This document shows positions 13,441 through 44,966 of a stretch of DNA of 45,443 nucleotides, in pieces (position 1 is the first letter of the stretch; each line of letters opens with the position of its first letter). Under the pieces are notes generated by a model, which was not told the origin of the DNA, made no database searches, and saw only the letters and a program-made list of their open reading frames with translations. The translations under genes and the position numbers were made by a program. Location of the stretch: assembly GCA_017480565.1 (NCBI GenBank), contig JAFVAL010000031.1, positions 1 to 45,443 of the forward strand, read 5' to 3'. The stretch comes from Lachnospiraceae bacterium. GTDB taxonomy: Bacteria > Bacillota > Clostridia > Lachnospirales > Lachnospiraceae.

Positions 13441-13522
13441 GTGAAATCTATGATTTCCTTTGGGCTGGTCGCAAGACCCAGGTCCATCATGGGCGGGGAA
13501 GTTCCCCGCTATTTTTTTATTA
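13441..13522 (+). ncRNA. Short structured leader RNA or attenuator
   Basis: From the predicted start the RNA can form a 6-bp hairpin (GAAATC-TAT-GATTTC), a second hairpin closed by a GCAA tetraloop (GGTC-GCAA-GACC, with flanking CT/CAG pairing), and a terminator hairpin (GCGGGG/CCCCGC) followed by TATTTTTTTATT. This is the plan of a cis-acting attenuator or a small terminated RNA of about 80 nt. AUGAU near 13450 can alternatively pair with AUCAU near 13485. I could not match it to a known riboswitch class. Confidence 0.5.
13493..13522 (+). terminator. Intrinsic terminator in the leader before the DUF3800 gene
   Basis: GCGGGG-AAGTT-CCCCGC followed by TATTTTTTTATT, located 60-80 bases after a strong promoter and just before the next ribosome binding site. 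It makes sense only as a conditional terminator or as the end of a small RNA. Confidence 0.75.
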
Positions 13523-28432: not shown

Positions 28433-28491
28433 GTATTCACTTGTGCGCCGGCCTTCCGGCTTGTCTGCTTCGTGCATCGAAACAGAAGAGT

Positions 28492-38654: not shown

Positions 38655-38665
38655 AAGGAATTAGT

Positions 38666-38713
38666 AACGAAAGCAGAAAAAGCAGTCTAAGGGCTGCTTT
38701 TTCTGCTTTCGTT
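38666..38713 (+). terminator. Long terminator closing the lactonase transcript
   Basis: A 20-bp perfect stem (AACGAAAGCAGAAAAAGCAG and its complement) has an 8-base loop. It isolates the CRISPR-Cas locus from the upstream genes. Confidence 0.85.
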
Positions 38714-38757
38714 TACGGTTTGAAGCGACAACACATCCAAACGTGGACATTTTTCGC

Positions 38758-38785
38758 TTGAAACGTTAGAAAATTGGTTTATAAT
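38758..38785 (+). promoter_or_regulatory. Probable cas operon promoter
   Basis: TTGAAA (38758-38763), 16 bp and TATAAT (38780-38785). The cas9 messenger would start near 38792 and carry a leader of about 195 bases that runs antisense through the whole tracrRNA gene. Confidence 0.65.
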
Positions 38786-38820
38786 AAGGATATATCGTAA
38801 TCGTTCGTATCATCTTTATA

Positions 38821-38849
38821 AAAAAAGAAAACCGTACTTTCGTACGGTT
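38821..38849 (-). terminator. Terminator of the tracrRNA
   Basis: On the minus strand AACCGTAC-GAAA-GTACGGTT, an 8-bp stem with a GAAA tetraloop, followed by TTCTTTTTT. Confidence 0.85.
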
Positions 38850-38921
38850 AGGATTGCCGCACCATGCGGCGTCACAAGGACGATGTCGGATAAACCTTAT
38901 TTGCACTCGTCTTGTTAATTC
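38821..38921 (-). ncRNA. tracrRNA of the type II-A system
   Basis: On the minus strand GAATTAACAAG (38921-38911) is the exact complement of repeat positions 11-21, A and C then pair with positions 10-9, and CAAAT (38903-38899) pairs with positions 1-5. This leaves a bulge of GAGTG opposite AGA, the lower stem - bulge - upper stem plan of crRNA:tracrRNA duplexes. AAGGTTTATCCG follows as in known nexus regions, then a 6-bp hairpin (38856-38870) and the terminator (38849-38830) with a U-run. The predicted length is about 100 nt. A consensus promoter places its first base at 38921. Confidence 0.85.
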
Positions 38922-38927
38922 TTCTTT

Positions 38928-38956
38928 AAGATAACACAGATGAGCTTATTGGTCAA
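38928..38956 (-). promoter_or_regulatory. tracrRNA promoter
   Basis: On the minus strand TTGACC (38956-38951), 17 bases and TATCTT (38933-38928). The expected start seven bases on is 38921, the first base of the anti-repeat. It overlaps the cas9 leader in the opposite sense. Confidence 0.75.
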
Positions 38957-38985
38957 GAGTTTTTGGAAGACAGGAGAAACATGTC

Positions 38986-41900
38986 ATGGGAAAATACTAT
39001 CTTGGTTTAGATATGGGTACAAGCACGGTTGGCTGGGCTGTTACAGACGAAGAGTATCGATTGATTCGAAAGAAGGGAAAAGATCTCTGGGGAATTCGTG
39101 AATTTGAAGAAGCGAAAACAGCTGTTGAACGTAGAACACAACGTGTTGCAAGACGAAGAAGACAAAGAGAAGTTGCTAGGATCGGATTACTGAAGAATTA
39201 TTTTAAAGATGCAGTTTCTGAAGTCGATCCAAACTTTTTCGAGCGAATGGAACAGAGCAAATACTACTTTGAGGATAAATCAGAAGGATTATATGCTTCC
39301 GATGCAACTCCGGATGCACTTTTTCACGACCTTGATTATCATGACAAAGATTATTATAGGGAGTATCCCACGATCTTCCATTTGCGTAAAGAACTGATTG
39401 AGAATTCTGAGCCGCATGATGTGAGGTTAGTATATCTTGCCTTGCTCAACATGTTTAAACATAGAGGCCACTTTTTAAATGCATCACTGGGATTAGAAGA
39501 TAGTGGGGCTGGACTTCATGACGCTTATAATGCATTATGTGAGCTGCTGACAACGAACGAATTGGGTATGTCGCTGCCGGCAGGAGCAGATATCGAACAA
39601 TTACAGGAGATTCTTTCCAGCAGAGATTATTCAAGAAGTAAAAAGCAAGAACTTATAGCTCAATTATTTGGGTTAGGAAAGAACCAGAAGAAAGAAGTTT
39701 TGCTTGTAAAGGCTATTTGCGGTTTGCAAGTCGATGCCAAAGCACTGTTCGGTTTAGAAGAGACTGAAGATAAAATTGGATTCAGCTTCTCAGATTTTTC
39801 TTATGACGAAAAAGAAGCAGACCTGTCTTCATCTGTTGGTGAAGATAACTTCCAAGTTATTCAGGCCTTAAAAGCAATCTATGATATTGGGTCACTTTCT
39901 GGCATCTTAAAGGGGGAGCGTTACCTTTCTCAGGCAAGGGTAAATGACTATAACAAGCATGCAGCTGACTTAAAACTTCTTAAAGAGGTATATAAAGATT
40001 GTCTTTCGAAGAAAGCATATCAGGCGATGTTCCGTTCGGAAGATGGCTCTTCTTATAGTGCGTATGTAGGCTCAAATTTGTCCGATGGGACGAAAAAACG
40101 TAGGTCGTATAAAGACAGAAAGGCTGATGACCTTTATAAGAAAATCAAAAAAGATCTTAAGGACGTAGATGATCCACGAGCCAAACTGATCTTAGAGGAG
40201 ATTAGCAAAGAGACTTTCTTACCAAAGCAACTAACATCTGCAAATGGAGTAATTCCAAATCAAGTGCATGCGAGAGAAATGAAGAAGATTCTTCAGAATG
40301 CATCCAATTATCTGCCATTCTTGGCCCAGATTGGGGAGAGCGGACAGCCGATTGCGGATGAAATTCTAGCACTGTTTACCTTCCAGATTCCTTATTATGT
40401 TGGACCGCTCAGCAGTGAAAGTGAGCGTAATGGAGGAAATGGATGGGTTGTGCGTAAAGAAGAAGGCGTTGTTATGCCTTGGAATCTTGAACAGAAGGTA
40501 GATCTTCGGAAAACATCGGAAAGATTTATTGAAAATTTGATCCGAAAGTGCACTTATCTGCAAGATGAAAAGGTGTTGCCAAAGGCGTCATTAAAGTACC
40601 AAAGATACTGTGTCCTGAATGAGATCAACAACCTGCGTTACGACGGAGACCGACTTCCAGTTGAGTGGAAGAAAGAGATCTATCATGAGCTGTTTGAAAC
40701 AAGAACGAAGGTAACCCGGAAATTAATCGAAGAATACTTGTCGAATAAGATCGGGAACAGAGAATTTGACGCTCAGAAACTGACCGGAATTGACAGGCAA
40801 GTGAATAATACTCTTTCATCATATGTCAAATTGAAAGCTGTTTTTGGGGACACAATTGATACAGATACCGGAAGAGAAATGGCAGAGAATATTATCTTCT
40901 GGTGCACAGTTTATGGTGACTCGAAGAAGTTTCTGCTTGAACAACTAGAACACCATTATCCACATCTAACGAAAGAAGATATTAAAAAGATCATCAGCTT
41001 CCGATTTAAGGATTGGGGGAATCTTTCTGATGCCTTTTTAGGGATGGAAGGTGTTGATAAGGCAACTGGCGAGGTGTGTTCGCTTCTGAAAGCATTGTGG
41101 GATAATAACCTGAACATGATGGAGCTTATACACAGTGAAGACTTTACATTTGCAGACACTTTAGCACAGCGTGAAAGCAGGGACTTAGAGAGTCTTTGTG
41201 AGATGAAGCCGGAAGATCTTGATGAATACTACTTCTCTGCACCGGTGAAGAAAATGATCTGGCAAACACTTCAAATCATCAAAGAAATTGAAAAGGTGAT
41301 GGGAGAAGCACCTGCAAAAGTCTTCATAGAGATGACAAGATCGGATGAAGAAAAGGGAGATCTTGGAAGAAAAGATTCCAGGAAGAAACAACTGCTTGAT
41401 TTATACAAGGCAGTAAAGGATGAATCCAGGGACTGGGCAGACCTGATTGAAAAAGAAGATGCGTCCGGAAGACTTCGCAGTAAAAAAATGTATCTGTATC
41501 TGCGTCAAATGGGACGAGATCTTTATACTGGGAAACCGATCGATCTTGACGACTTGTTTAACGATAATTTATATGACATTGATCATATCTACCCGAGACA
41601 TTTTGTAAAAGACGATAATTTGGAGAACAATCTTGCACTCGTCAATAAGCCTGACAACGCGAACAAAACAGATAATTATCCTTTGGATGCGAATATCCGT
41701 CAAAATCCAAAGGTTAAAGAATTGTGGGAATCTTTGCATATTGCGGGGTTAATGAATGATGAGAAGTATCGTAGATTAACAGGCAGCAGACCATTTACAG
41801 AGGAACAGCAGGCAGATTTTATTGCTAGACAGTTGGTTGAGACAAGCCAAGCTACCAAGGGTGTTGCAGATGTATTAAAGCAAGTATTTCCTGAAACGAC

Positions 41901-43062
41901 TGCAGTTGTATATTCGAAGGCTGGCAATGTCTCTGAATTCCGTCACGATAAGCATTTTTATAAGTCGCGTCTTGTTAATGACTTCCATCATGCGCATGAC
42001 GCATATCTTAATATCGTTGTGGGAAATGTTTATGATGTTAAATTCACCAGAAGTCCACGAAGTTTTATTCGTAAGATGGTAAAGGAAAATGGTGAAGAAT
42101 ACAATCTCAACCGGATGTTTGACTTTGATGTAAAACGAGGTGAAACGGTTGCTTGGATTGGACCCAGAAAAGGAAACGCTGGAACTATCGAGACGGTTCG
42201 AAAGATGATGTCAAAGAACACACCACTGTTGACGAGACAGAGCTTTACGGGACACGGACAGATATCTGATGCTACATTAAAGAGTGCCGAGGATGCAAAA
42301 AATGGTAGCGGGTATATTCCTTTAAAGTCTTCTGATATGAGATTAAGGAATATGGACAGGTATGGTGGCTTTACAAAAGCGACAACAGCATATTTTTTCT
42401 TAGTAGAACATGATGGAAAGAAGGGAAGAGTCAGAACTCTGGAGACGGTACCATTGTTTTTAAAGGCGATGGTGGAGAAAGACCCAGACTATTTAATAAA
42501 GTACTGCAGTGAGATATTAGACCTAAAAAATCCAGACATAAGACTAAACCGTATTAAGATACAATCCACACTTAAGTTAAACGATTTTTATTTATATTTA
42601 TCTGGGAGGACAGGAAACCAGATTTTCCTTCGAAACGCTGTACAGATGAAACTTCATCCTTCTTGGGTAAAATATATTAAAGCACTTGAAAATGGGACGG
42701 AAAAGATGCGCTTCGCAGAGAGCGTTACAAAAGAAAAGAATTTTGAATTATACCAGGTACTTAAAGAGAAACATGTAACGGGGATTTACTCCAAACGACC
42801 CAATCCTGTCGGAAAAAAACTAGTTTCTGGAGAGCATATGTTCTTAGAACTCTCTTTGGATAGACAGGTATATGTACTGCTGCAGATTCTTGGTTTAAGC
42901 AATATCGGTCCTACATCTGCGGATTTAACAGATATTGGAGGATCCGGAGCTAGTGGTACGATGAAGATTTCTAATACTGTTAATACATGGGGTGAGGCAT
43001 ATATTCTTAATCAAAGTACAACGGGTGTATTTGAAGAAAAGATTAACCTATTGACAATCTAA
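38986..43062 (+). CDS. cas9: Type II-A CRISPR effector nuclease Cas9
   Basis: Cas9 cuts DNA matched by a crRNA:tracrRNA guide. The 1358-residue protein is close in size to SpCas9. It shows RuvC-I (YYLGLDMGTSTVGWAV, Asp9), the Arg-rich bridge helix (RRTQRVARRRRQRE, about 50-65), RuvC-II (VFIEMTR, Glu782), HNH (YDIDHIYPRHF, His867; Asn891 matches SpCas9 Asn863) and RuvC-III (HHAHDAYLN, His1002 and Asp1005). All catalytic residues are present. The C-terminal PAM-interacting part ends GGSGASGTMKISN and NQSTTGVFEEKI, like clostridial II-A proteins and without the Arg-x-Arg pair of SpCas9. AGGAGA lies eight bases before the ATG. The gene is AT-rich relative to its upstream neighbours. Confidence 0.98.
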   Translation: MGKYYLGLDMGTSTVGWAVTDEEYRLIRKKGKDLWGIREFEEAKTAVERRTQRVARRRRQREVARIGLLKNYFKDAVSEVDPNFFERMEQSKYYFEDKSEGLYASDATPDALFHDLDYHDKDYYREYPTIFHLRKELIENSEPHDVRLVYLALLNMFKHRGHFLNASLGLEDSGAGLHDAYNALCELLTTNELGMSLPAGADIEQLQEILSSRDYSRSKKQELIAQLFGLGKNQKKEVLLVKAICGLQVDAKALFGLEETEDKIGFSFSDFSYDEKEADLSSSVGEDNFQVIQALKAIYDIGSLSGILKGERYLSQARVNDYNKHAADLKLLKEVYKDCLSKKAYQAMFRSEDGSSYSAYVGSNLSDGTKKRRSYKDRKADDLYKKIKKDLKDVDDPRAKLILEEISKETFLPKQLTSANGVIPNQVHAREMKKILQNASNYLPFLAQIGESGQPIADEILALFTFQIPYYVGPLSSESERNGGNGWVVRKEEGVVMPWNLEQKVDLRKTSERFIENLIRKCTYLQDEKVLPKASLKYQRYCVLNEINNLRYDGDRLPVEWKKEIYHELFETRTKVTRKLIEEYLSNKIGNREFDAQKLTGIDRQVNNTLSSYVKLKAVFGDTIDTDTGREMAENIIFWCTVYGDSKKFLLEQLEHHYPHLTKEDIKKIISFRFKDWGNLSDAFLGMEGVDKATGEVCSLLKALWDNNLNMMELIHSEDFTFADTLAQRESRDLESLCEMKPEDLDEYYFSAPVKKMIWQTLQIIKEIEKVMGEAPAKVFIEMTRSDEEKGDLGRKDSRKKQLLDLYKAVKDESRDWADLIEKEDASGRLRSKKMYLYLRQMGRDLYTGKPIDLDDLFNDNLYDIDHIYPRHFVKDDNLENNLALVNKPDNANKTDNYPLDANIRQNPKVKELWESLHIAGLMNDEKYRRLTGSRPFTEEQQADFIARQLVETSQATKGVADVLKQVFPETTAVVYSKAGNVSEFRHDKHFYKSRLVNDFHHAHDAYLNIVVGNVYDVKFTRSPRSFIRKMVKENGEEYNLNRMFDFDVKRGETVAWIGPRKGNAGTIETVRKMMSKNTPLLTRQSFTGHGQISDATLKSAEDAKNGSGYIPLKSSDMRLRNMDRYGGFTKATTAYFFLVEHDGKKGRVRTLETVPLFLKAMVEKDPDYLIKYCSEILDLKNPDIRLNRIKIQSTLKLNDFYLYLSGRTGNQIFLRNAVQMKLHPSWVKYIKALENGTEKMRFAESVTKEKNFELYQVLKEKHVTGIYSKRPNPVGKKLVSGEHMFLELSLDRQVYVLLQILGLSNIGPTSADLTDIGGSGASGTMKISNTVNTWGEAYILNQSTTGVFEEKINLLTI

Positions 43063-44249: not shown

Positions 44250-44920
44250 AACTATTAATTCCACAATGTTCTCTTGAACTGTATCAGACTGAAAACACAA
44301 TTGATATTTTAACTATCGAAGAGCCTTCCACTTTCGCTTCGGTGGTAGGCGACCTGTGGCAGCAGGTGACTGGTAATGATGGGGATTGCATGTTATCAGA
44401 ACTTGGAGCTTCTATGGCAATTTCTAAGAGCGCAGACATCATTTTTAATCCGTTTTCATTAGATTGTAATAACAGTAAAGTACTTAAAGTCATTTATCAA
44501 GTGCTTGAAAGGGAGATGGACACAGAGACTATAGAACTACGGGGGAAGATTCAACAAGATTTGCTAGAGCTCATGGATCATATTGCAGAGACTGAATGGT
44601 ACCCTTTAGCATATGATGTGAATTTGGAGTTGCCAACAGTTTTTAAATTATGCAACCTTAAACTTGATTTTCAGGAGAGCGCTTTATTAGAGAGGGTACA
44701 TAATTATGTCCGCATCATGCACCAAGTGTGTGGCGTAAGATTATTTGTTTTTGTTAACCTTAAACAGTATTTTTCAAATCGTGAATTAGATTTGCTATAT
44801 CAAGATTTCCTGTATGAAAATATATGGGTTGTTGATTTTGAGTCTGCTTTTCGTCAGGTGATAGAGCATGAAAATAATGTCATTTTTGACAAGGATTTCT
44901 GCTTGATCCATCTGGATTAA
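44246..44920 (+). CDS. csn2: Csn2, type II-A adaptation protein
   Basis: Csn2 forms a ring-shaped tetramer that slides on DNA ends and is needed for spacer acquisition. The 224-residue product is the length of the short S. pyogenes-type Csn2. Recognisable stretches are MKLLIPQCSLE, the DIIFNPFSLDCNNSKVLK region and the helical middle with DLLELMDHIAE, then VCGVRLFVFVNLKQYFS. The start is a GTG that overlaps the cas2 stop. Its presence defines subtype II-A. The array leader begins directly after its stop. Confidence 0.93.
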   Translation: MKLLIPQCSLELYQTENTIDILTIEEPSTFASVVGDLWQQVTGNDGDCMLSELGASMAISKSADIIFNPFSLDCNNSKVLKVIYQVLEREMDTETIELRGKIQQDLLELMDHIAETEWYPLAYDVNLELPTVFKLCNLKLDFQESALLERVHNYVRIMHQVCGVRLFVFVNLKQYFSNRELDLLYQDFLYENIWVVDFESAFRQVIEHENNVIFDKDFCLIHLD

Positions 44921-44966
44921 CGACGCATTCGTAGTGCGGTGATTCGTGGAAAACCTCGAATTTGAG
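44921..44966 (+). promoter_or_regulatory. CRISPR leader
   Basis: Only 46 bases separate csn2 from the first repeat. The last seven, ATTTGAG (44960-44966), match a leader-end motif reported for type II-A systems, where Cas1-Cas2 integrates. No clear pre-crRNA promoter lies in the 46 bases; TTGACA at 44886-44891 inside csn2 has no good -10. Confidence 0.7.

What the first reader, a model, noticed from the sequence alone, without database searches (positions are those of the whole stretch)
38821..38956. Compact tracrRNA on the antisense strand, starting exactly at the anti-repeat
Sequence shows a consensus promoter (TTGACC-N17-TATCTT) whose predicted start coincides with the first base complementary to the repeat, so there seems to be no extra 5' sequence and no processing needed on that side. 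The anti-repeat, a nexus-like stretch, one hairpin and a GAAA-loop terminator fill about 100 nt. Known type II-A tracrRNAs often have longer 5' parts that are trimmed by RNase III. This would be a naturally minimal tracrRNA with its own architecture.
Basis: partly seen in the sequence, partly recalled or inferred. Interest (0 to 1): 0.75.

Follow-up and report, generated by a model that had tools for sequence, protein, structure and literature searches.

The report
Half-length tracrRNA in a CRISPR-Cas9 clade
The small helper RNA of this bacterial CRISPR-Cas9 system appears to be transcribed already trimmed, pairing with only about half of each CRISPR repeat, and a group of related bacteria shares this, which raises the testable question of how they mature their guide RNAs.

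Summary
A minus-strand promoter (38956-38928) predicts an RNA start at 38921, the first base complementary to the CRISPR repeat; the RNA ends at a GAAA-loop terminator near 38821, upstream of a complete type II-A locus.

Starting at the anti-repeat is not unusual: predicted starts lie within 4 nt of it in 14 of 18 close relatives and 23 of 45 other loci. The unusual part is the anti-repeat length. The upper stem is 13 nt here, 11-17 nt in 21 of 22 loci of one Cas9 clade, against 26-41 nt in 36 of 39 other measured loci. A matrix-free check agrees. In that clade, changes in repeat nt 9-21 are matched in the anti-repeat, but not beyond.

So the primary transcript seems to begin about where RNase III trims the S. 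pyogenes tracrRNA. RNase III-independent crRNA maturation is untested; RNase III genes are present.

The likely cas9 promoter lies beyond the tracrRNA terminator, making the cas9 leader antisense to the whole tracrRNA, as with a Group B Streptococcus promoter. Verdict: new variant of a known kind.

The parts
38951..38956 (-). -35 box TTGACC of the tracrRNA promoter
   Evidence: conserved position in relatives
38928..38933 (-). -10 box TATCTT with extended -10 TGT
38821..38921 (-). tracrRNA, predicted primary transcript of about 101 nt
   Evidence: RNA model match 38825-38921, (the window was one of the 19 training sequences, so it matches by construction)
38909..38921 (-). upper anti-repeat, 13 bp with repeat nt 9-21
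   Evidence: covariation with the repeat in relatives
38899..38903 (-). lower anti-repeat CAAAU, pairs with repeat nt 1-5 (GUUUG)
   Evidence: duplex prediction
38888..38896 (-). nexus-like GG...CC stem; both pairs invariant in 19 of 19 aligned sequences, so they give no covariation evidence
38856..38870 (-). hairpin GCCGCA-UGG-UGCGGC with compensatory changes in relatives; its outermost pair is unpaired in 11 of 19
   Evidence: 17 cells changed on both sides against 5.8 in shuffles
38820..38849 (-). GAAA-loop intrinsic terminator and T tail
38758..38785 (+). likely cas9 operon promoter TTGAAA-16-TATAAT, beyond the tracrRNA terminator; predicted 194-nt leader antisense to the whole tracrRNA
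   Evidence: 11 of 12 matches
38986..43062 (+). cas9 (1358 aa)
   Evidence: TIGR01865
43067..43939 (+). cas1
   Evidence: TIGR03639
43929..44249 (+). cas2
   Evidence: TIGR01573
44246..44920 (+). csn2
   Evidence: TIGR01866
44967..45443 (+). CRISPR array, 7 complete 36-nt repeats, running off the contig end

Best explanation
This is the tracrRNA gene of a type II-A CRISPR-Cas9 locus in a probable Lachnospiraceae genome, of a half-length anti-repeat form that marks one Cas9 clade. Its promoter starts the RNA at repeat-pairing position 21, so the primary transcript pairs only with repeat nt 1-5 and 9-21 (18 bp with an internal loop). The 3' 15 nt of the repeat stay unpaired by it. The RNA is thus made with roughly the 5' end that S. 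pyogenes tracrRNA has after RNase III trimming. It then works like any tracrRNA: it pairs with each pre-crRNA repeat, docks on Cas9 through the nexus and hairpin, and the crRNA is trimmed to the duplex. Supported by sequence comparison: promoter position, duplex limits, clade conservation. Inferred: the actual start site, expression and Cas9 binding, that no RNase III cut is needed on the tracrRNA side, and that the free repeat 3' half is removed by single-strand nucleases or by RNase III acting inside the short duplex.
For: Promoter, anti-repeat and terminator in register. Complete cas9-cas1-cas2-csn2 and array. Distance D from predicted start to the 3' edge of the upper anti-repeat: 13 here, 11-17 in 21 of 22 clade loci, against 26-41 in 36 of 39 others. 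Matrix-free check: D 10-18 sites in 20 of 22 clade loci and D 24-42 in 0 of 22; others 3 of 39 and 21 of 39. Among 19 loci found by the RNA model and not measured before, 12 give D 11-19, five give 29-32 and two have no promoter in place. Cas9 tree (quick method): the 22 loci form one branch, SH-aLRT 100. Repeat:anti-repeat covariation in 15 clade loci: own pairing 0.974 against 0.805 when swapped, permutation p 0.0005; Watson-Crick pairing in 14 or 15 of 15 for nt 9-20, 11 of 15 at nt 21, 7 of 15 at nt 22. Predicted duplex 16-20 bp in 16 clade loci against 27-34 bp in 35 of 36 others, L128 having 22.
Against: No RNA data: every start site is a consensus prediction with a +7 rule. L108 gives D 21, and L153 and L177 show no promoter in place. 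For 33 of the 39 non-clade loci the anchor required a good anti-repeat match, which favours long anti-repeats (this also bears); of the 6 anchored without that rule, 3 are long and 3 short (L017, L128, L130). 39 of 100 loci were not measured. RNase III is encoded in the own genome and in 24 of 24 examined genomes with such a locus, so nothing indicates that it became dispensable. Processing sites are described as often unpredictable in lactobacilli (PMC6070500, passages), so the S. pyogenes cut may be a poor guide for this clade.
Confidence: 0.78

Rival explanations
1. Ordinary S. pyogenes-like tracrRNA: RNase III still cuts both strands inside the shorter duplex, and the short anti-repeat has no consequence for the maturation pathway.
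For: Start near the anti-repeat edge is common. RNase III is encoded in 24 of 24 examined genomes of the group. 18 bp of duplex remain.
Against: The duplex ends at repeat nt 21, whereas long-type duplexes continue much further (S. gallinaceus L052: paired to nt 33) and S. pyogenes tracrRNA is trimmed from 89 to 75 nt (PMC6546361, passages). For repeat nt 24-33 the clade shows hardly more pairing with upstream bases in own than in swapped pairs (0.49, 0.45).
Confidence: 0.5
2. A longer primary tracrRNA (tracr-L type) starts upstream, so the start at 38921 is only one of two forms.
For: S. pyogenes makes 171-nt and 89-nt forms (PMC6546361, passages; PMC11417352, passages, on the long and short forms).
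Against: Only 29 nt separate the tracrRNA -35 box from the cas9 start codon. The scanner finds no second minus-strand promoter in 38655-39100. Upstream bases do not extend the anti-repeat.
Confidence: 0.15
3. The promoter match is chance and the RNA is cut from a longer antisense transcript starting in cas9.
For: The single-site score is only modestly above chance.
Against: A site recurs at a similar offset in 20 of 22 clade loci, shuffles at most 3, and in 12 of 19 further loci found by an RNA model that does not include the promoter, five more having one at the long-type offset.
Confidence: 0.05
4. The locus is also an antisense switch: cas9 mRNA starting near 38792 carries a leader complementary to the whole tracrRNA, so tracrRNA and cas9 levels limit each other by duplex formation or colliding polymerases. 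This is compatible with the best explanation.
For: Plus-strand promoter signal in the 120 nt at and beyond the tracrRNA terminator in 22 clade loci: 8 of 22 with p up to 0.05, Fisher 9e-8; between tracrRNA and cas9 0 of 22, Fisher 0.95. Group B Streptococcus has a cas promoter (P2cas) at the tracrRNA 3' end (PMC12216829, passages).
Against: The same zone on the other strand also deviates slightly (2 of 22, Fisher 0.019), 14 of 22 loci are not individually significant, the shuffles keep only base composition, the signal is weaker in 34 other loci (3 of 34, Fisher 0.008), and regulation itself is untested.
Confidence: 0.35

Closest known systems
S. pyogenes type II-A tracrRNA, short form (tracr-S, 89 nt; 75 nt after RNase III)
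   Same: Type II-A; tracrRNA near the cas operon with an anti-repeat, nexus, 3' hairpins and terminator; antisense placement upstream of cas9 and start close to the anti-repeat are recalled for S. pyogenes
   Different: Here the primary anti-repeat upper stem is 13 nt. In S. pyogenes it is about 26 nt before and 12 nt after trimming (26 and 12 are from the recalled sequence; 89 and 75 nt from PMC6546361, passages)
Treponema-type II-A locus (T. putidum, L046)
   Same: Same GAGTTCAAATAA core; among loci of named species outside the clade its Cas9 is the closest (38% identity)
   Different: Long anti-repeat, D 34, 30 bp duplex
Group B Streptococcus P2cas arrangement
   Different: There a proximal P1cas, repressed through tracr-L, also exists except in strains that lost it; no such proximal promoter was found here
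Rfam RF02348 tracrRNA
   Same: A weak match overlaps the gene (38849-38938)
   Different: 16.5 bits against a gathering score of 70, E 2.8

Membership tests
[quoted passage not shown]
   all four above curated cut-offs; co-transcription not tested
Type II tracrRNA | Anti-repeat that pairs with the locus's own repeat | tested here: met
   13 nt exact plus 5 bp lower stem; covariation in relatives
Type II tracrRNA | Nexus, 3' hairpin(s) and intrinsic terminator | tested here: met
   by sequence only, the nexus pairs never vary
Type II tracrRNA | Expressed small RNA bound by Cas9 | not testable with these tools
   no RNA data
Rfam RF02348 tracrRNA | Score at or above gathering threshold | tested here: not met
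   16.5 bits against 70
S. pyogenes-type tracrRNA with long anti-repeat | Primary anti-repeat pairing with most of the repeat (to about nt 33) | tested here: not met
   pairing stops at nt 21, if the predicted start is right
RNase III-processed dual RNA | RNase III cut of tracrRNA and pre-crRNA in the duplex | not testable with these tools
   RNase III gene present; cleavage unknown
tracr-L autorepression | Second upstream promoter giving a long form with a guide to Pcas | tested here: inconclusive
   no second promoter in the scan of 38655-39100; guide match not tested

The most novel reading that the evidence does not exclude
A type II-A clade makes its tracrRNA 'born trimmed': promoter placement replaces the RNase III cut on the tracrRNA side. 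The pre-crRNA repeat is then processed without the canonical RNase III cut, which would be RNase III-independent guide maturation in type II-A.
Probability: 0.3. Interest if true: 0.68.

Novelty: new variant of a known kind. Interest (0 to 1): 0.46.

Why it matters
RNase III co-processing is described as conserved in type II systems (PMC6546361, passages; RNase III-independent exceptions in type II-C are recalled, not looked up). A clade whose tracrRNA starts at about the trimmed position and whose repeats keep pairing on one half only is a natural experiment on whether that step is needed in type II-A. The natural duplex also has about the length used in engineered single guides (16 nt of repeat in PMC7606464, passages), and tracrRNA searches that rank anti-repeats by match length may place such systems low.

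Tried and rejected
Rejected: that a start at the anti-repeat is itself unusual. Rejected: that the RNA is exceptionally short (clade median 95.5 nt; S. pyogenes 89 nt; the length rule stops inside the terminator loop of L012 and L113). Not found: a second site that could pair with the repeat 3' half. Tested without support: loss of RNase III in the clade (a match in 24 of 24 genomes, 23 over the cut-off; G332 holds it as two pieces on two contigs). Tested, inconclusive: a single origin of all 25 short-type loci (AU p 0.066). Suggestive but without a significance test: faster change of the repeat 3' half (pairwise identity 0.55 against 0.74 for nt 9-21 in 16 clade repeats; 0.63 against 0.69 in 11 sister-clade repeats; 0.65 against 0.65 in 24 others). 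Mixed: in the hairpin count, changed cells and covariation score beat all 500 shuffles, but the number of pairs changed on both sides is reached by 28 and of further pair types by 218 of 500. The first anti-repeat mapping placed the L018 anti-repeat wrongly, and L018 with it is one of the 45 'other' loci; one search uses a core-motif anchor instead.

Dropped before counting: of 100 loci with a Cas9 match, 39 were not measured (no anchor, cas9 start or enough upstream sequence; L137 is identical to L009; listed). L119 (clade, identity just under 42%) is in the 22 but not in the 15. L009, L015 and L118 were left out of the structure alignment A1 (19 of 22 clade loci used). Five of 39 non-clade loci had no terminator run and were left out (34 counted).

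Literature: in the listings of 9 searches and in the passages I read, I saw no report of a half-length anti-repeat clade. The library lacks most subscription papers, and three papers that I looked for by DOI from recall (a 2013 tracrRNA-Cas9 survey, a 2018/2019 tracrRNA survey, the tracr-L paper) were not held, so novelty is not established.

Full report
Setting. The window holds a complete type II-A locus: cas9 (38986-43062), cas1, cas2, csn2, all above curated cut-offs, and an array of 36-nt repeats from 44967 that runs off the contig end. Sixteen more exact repeat copies lie on contig C61 of the same genome. The genome's family is probably Lachnospiraceae: a same-family genome contributes a contig identical to one titled Lachnospiraceae (L137 = L009).

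Observation. On the minus strand, TTGACC-17-TATCTT with an extended -10 lies at 38956-38928, and +7 from the -10 is 38921, the first base of a 13-nt exact complement of repeat nt 9-21. With the 5-bp lower stem the predicted crRNA:tracrRNA duplex is 18 bp, -20.8 kcal/mol, paired at repeat nt 1-5 and 9-21. Downstream come a nexus-like GG...CC, a hairpin and a GAAA-loop terminator. The single promoter is only weakly above chance (2 sites on both strands against 0.8 +/- 1.0 expected), so relatives had to decide.

Relatives. Cas9 searches gave 69 loci from species genomes and matches in 31 of 397 family genomes, the window's own included; flanking DNA of the other 30 was fetched. Anti-repeats were mapped with each locus's own array repeat, or with a generic clade repeat where no array was found. 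I first asked whether a start at the anti-repeat edge is special. It is not: within +/- 4 nt in 14 of 18 close relatives (the window included) and 23 of 45 other loci, one of which (L018) was mis-mapped.

What is special. I measured D, the distance from predicted start to the 3' edge of the upper anti-repeat. D is 13 here. Of 100 loci with a Cas9 match 61 could be measured. The 22 loci of the window's clade (Cas9 about 42% identity or more) give 11-17 in 21 and 21 in one (L108); of the 39 others, 36 give 26-41 and three give 12, 15 and 16. A matrix-free count of TTG-N16-18-TAnnnT sites agrees: D 10-18 in 20 of 22 clade loci and 3 of 39 others; D 24-42 in 0 of 22 and 21 of 39; 200 shuffles reach at most 3 for D 10-18 and 5 for D 24-42 in either group. 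One bias must be stated: 33 of the 39 non-clade loci were anchored through a good anti-repeat match, which favours long ones; among the 6 anchored on the core motif alone, 3 are long and 3 short. The clade side is free of this bias, as all 22 were anchored on the core motif.

Further loci. A covariance model of the RNA (R1, 19 sequences, promoter not included) matched 29 of 397 family genomes and 21 of 392 order genomes (the two sets overlap). R1 also matches long-type loci (for example L122), so it does not select for D. Of the 40 loci it gave, 19 had not been measured. Twelve give D 11-19 (two of them with matrix scores below 8, L152 and L174), five give 29-32 (L156, L157, L161, L165, L178; long type), and L153 and L177 have no promoter in place.

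Phylogeny and selection. In a Cas9 tree of 61 rows (quick method, no bootstrap) the 22 clade loci form one branch (SH-aLRT 100); the short trait needs 3 changes, with L128/L130 beside long-type loci (99) and L017 apart. Forcing all 25 short loci into one clade is not firmly rejected (AU p 0.066). In 15 clade loci with repeats, Watson-Crick pairing holds at repeat nt 9-20 in 14 or 15 of 15 with several compensatory pair types, then drops to 11 of 15 at nt 21 and 7 of 15 at nt 22. Own pairing over nt 9-21 is 0.974 against 0.805 with swapped partners (permutation p 0.0005). For repeat nt 24-33 own and swapped pairing are 0.49 and 0.45 in the clade but 0.87 and 0.65 in 35 long-type loci. Predicted duplexes have 16-20 bp in 16 clade loci and 27-34 bp in 35 of 36 others, with L128 at 22. 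The 3' hairpin shows 17 cells changed on both sides against 5.8 in shuffles, though two coarser measures do not stand out clearly (reached by 28 and 218 of 500 shuffles).

Interpretation. S. pyogenes makes 171- and 89-nt primary tracrRNAs, and RNase III gives a 75-nt form (PMC6546361, passages; PMC3936727, passages). Trimming 14 nt from an upper stem of about 26 nt (26 measured for S. gallinaceus L052; S. pyogenes sequence recalled) leaves about 12, close to where this clade's primary transcript begins. So the promoter appears to do what trimming does elsewhere. What happens to the pre-crRNA is open. RNase III is encoded in the own genome and in 24 of 24 examined genomes, 23 of them with an R1 match and one (G332) whose clade locus came from the Cas9 search, so independence is a hypothesis, not a finding. 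Rfam's tracrRNA family scores far below its threshold here (16.5 against 70 bits).

Second feature. The space between the tracrRNA -35 box and the cas9 start codon is 29 nt and holds no promoter-like site. A strong plus-strand promoter (TTGAAA-16-TATAAT, 38758-38785) lies beyond the tracrRNA terminator. Across the 22 clade loci this zone is enriched for plus-strand promoters (Fisher 9e-8; 8 of 22 individually at p up to 0.05), the same zone read on the other strand much less (0.019; 2 of 22), and the tracrRNA-cas9 interval not at all (0.95; 0 of 22). In 34 other loci the zone is weaker (0.008; 3 of 34). The shuffles keep base composition only. The cas9 mRNA leader would then be antisense to the whole tracrRNA. 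A promoter at the tracrRNA 3' end (P2cas) is known in Group B Streptococcus (PMC12216829, passages), so the arrangement has a precedent; a regulatory role is inference.

Novelty. New variant of a known kind. The listings of nine searches of the held open library and the passages I read showed no report of it, but three papers on tracrRNA diversity and tracr-L that I looked for were not held, so the short anti-repeat may have been drawn somewhere in print.

Noticed in passing
window 13461-13507 +: Rfam DUF3800-XI RNA match (66.7 bits, gathering 37.8), far from the CRISPR locus.
   Followed up: no
window 38762-38802 +: Weak gut-2 RNA-like match (21.8 bits, gathering 39.8, E 0.012) overlapping the likely cas9 promoter; may be chance.
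   Followed up: partly
window 44960-44966 +: ATTTGAG directly before the first repeat, like the recalled leader-anchoring site of streptococcal type II-A arrays.
   Followed up: no
window 44600-44966 +: Only a weak plus-strand promoter-like site before the array (44851-44878, 9 of 12), so the array may be transcribed with the cas operon.
   Followed up: partly
window 38666-38713: Long perfect hairpin (20-nt arms, read directly from the sequence) between the upstream lactonase-like gene and the CRISPR locus, perhaps a two-way terminator.
   Followed up: no
L120, L121, L125, L126: In these same-family relatives the tracrRNA core lies on the same strand as cas9 instead of antisense; three of them give long-type D 30-31 (L156, L157, L161).
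   Followed up: partly
L128, L130, L017: Short-type tracrRNAs outside the main clade, possibly independent origins.
   Followed up: partly
G000 contig C61:28173-29309: Second stretch of the same array (16 exact full repeats; one copy with a variant 3' half at 28437), probably the rest of the array broken by assembly.
   Followed up: no
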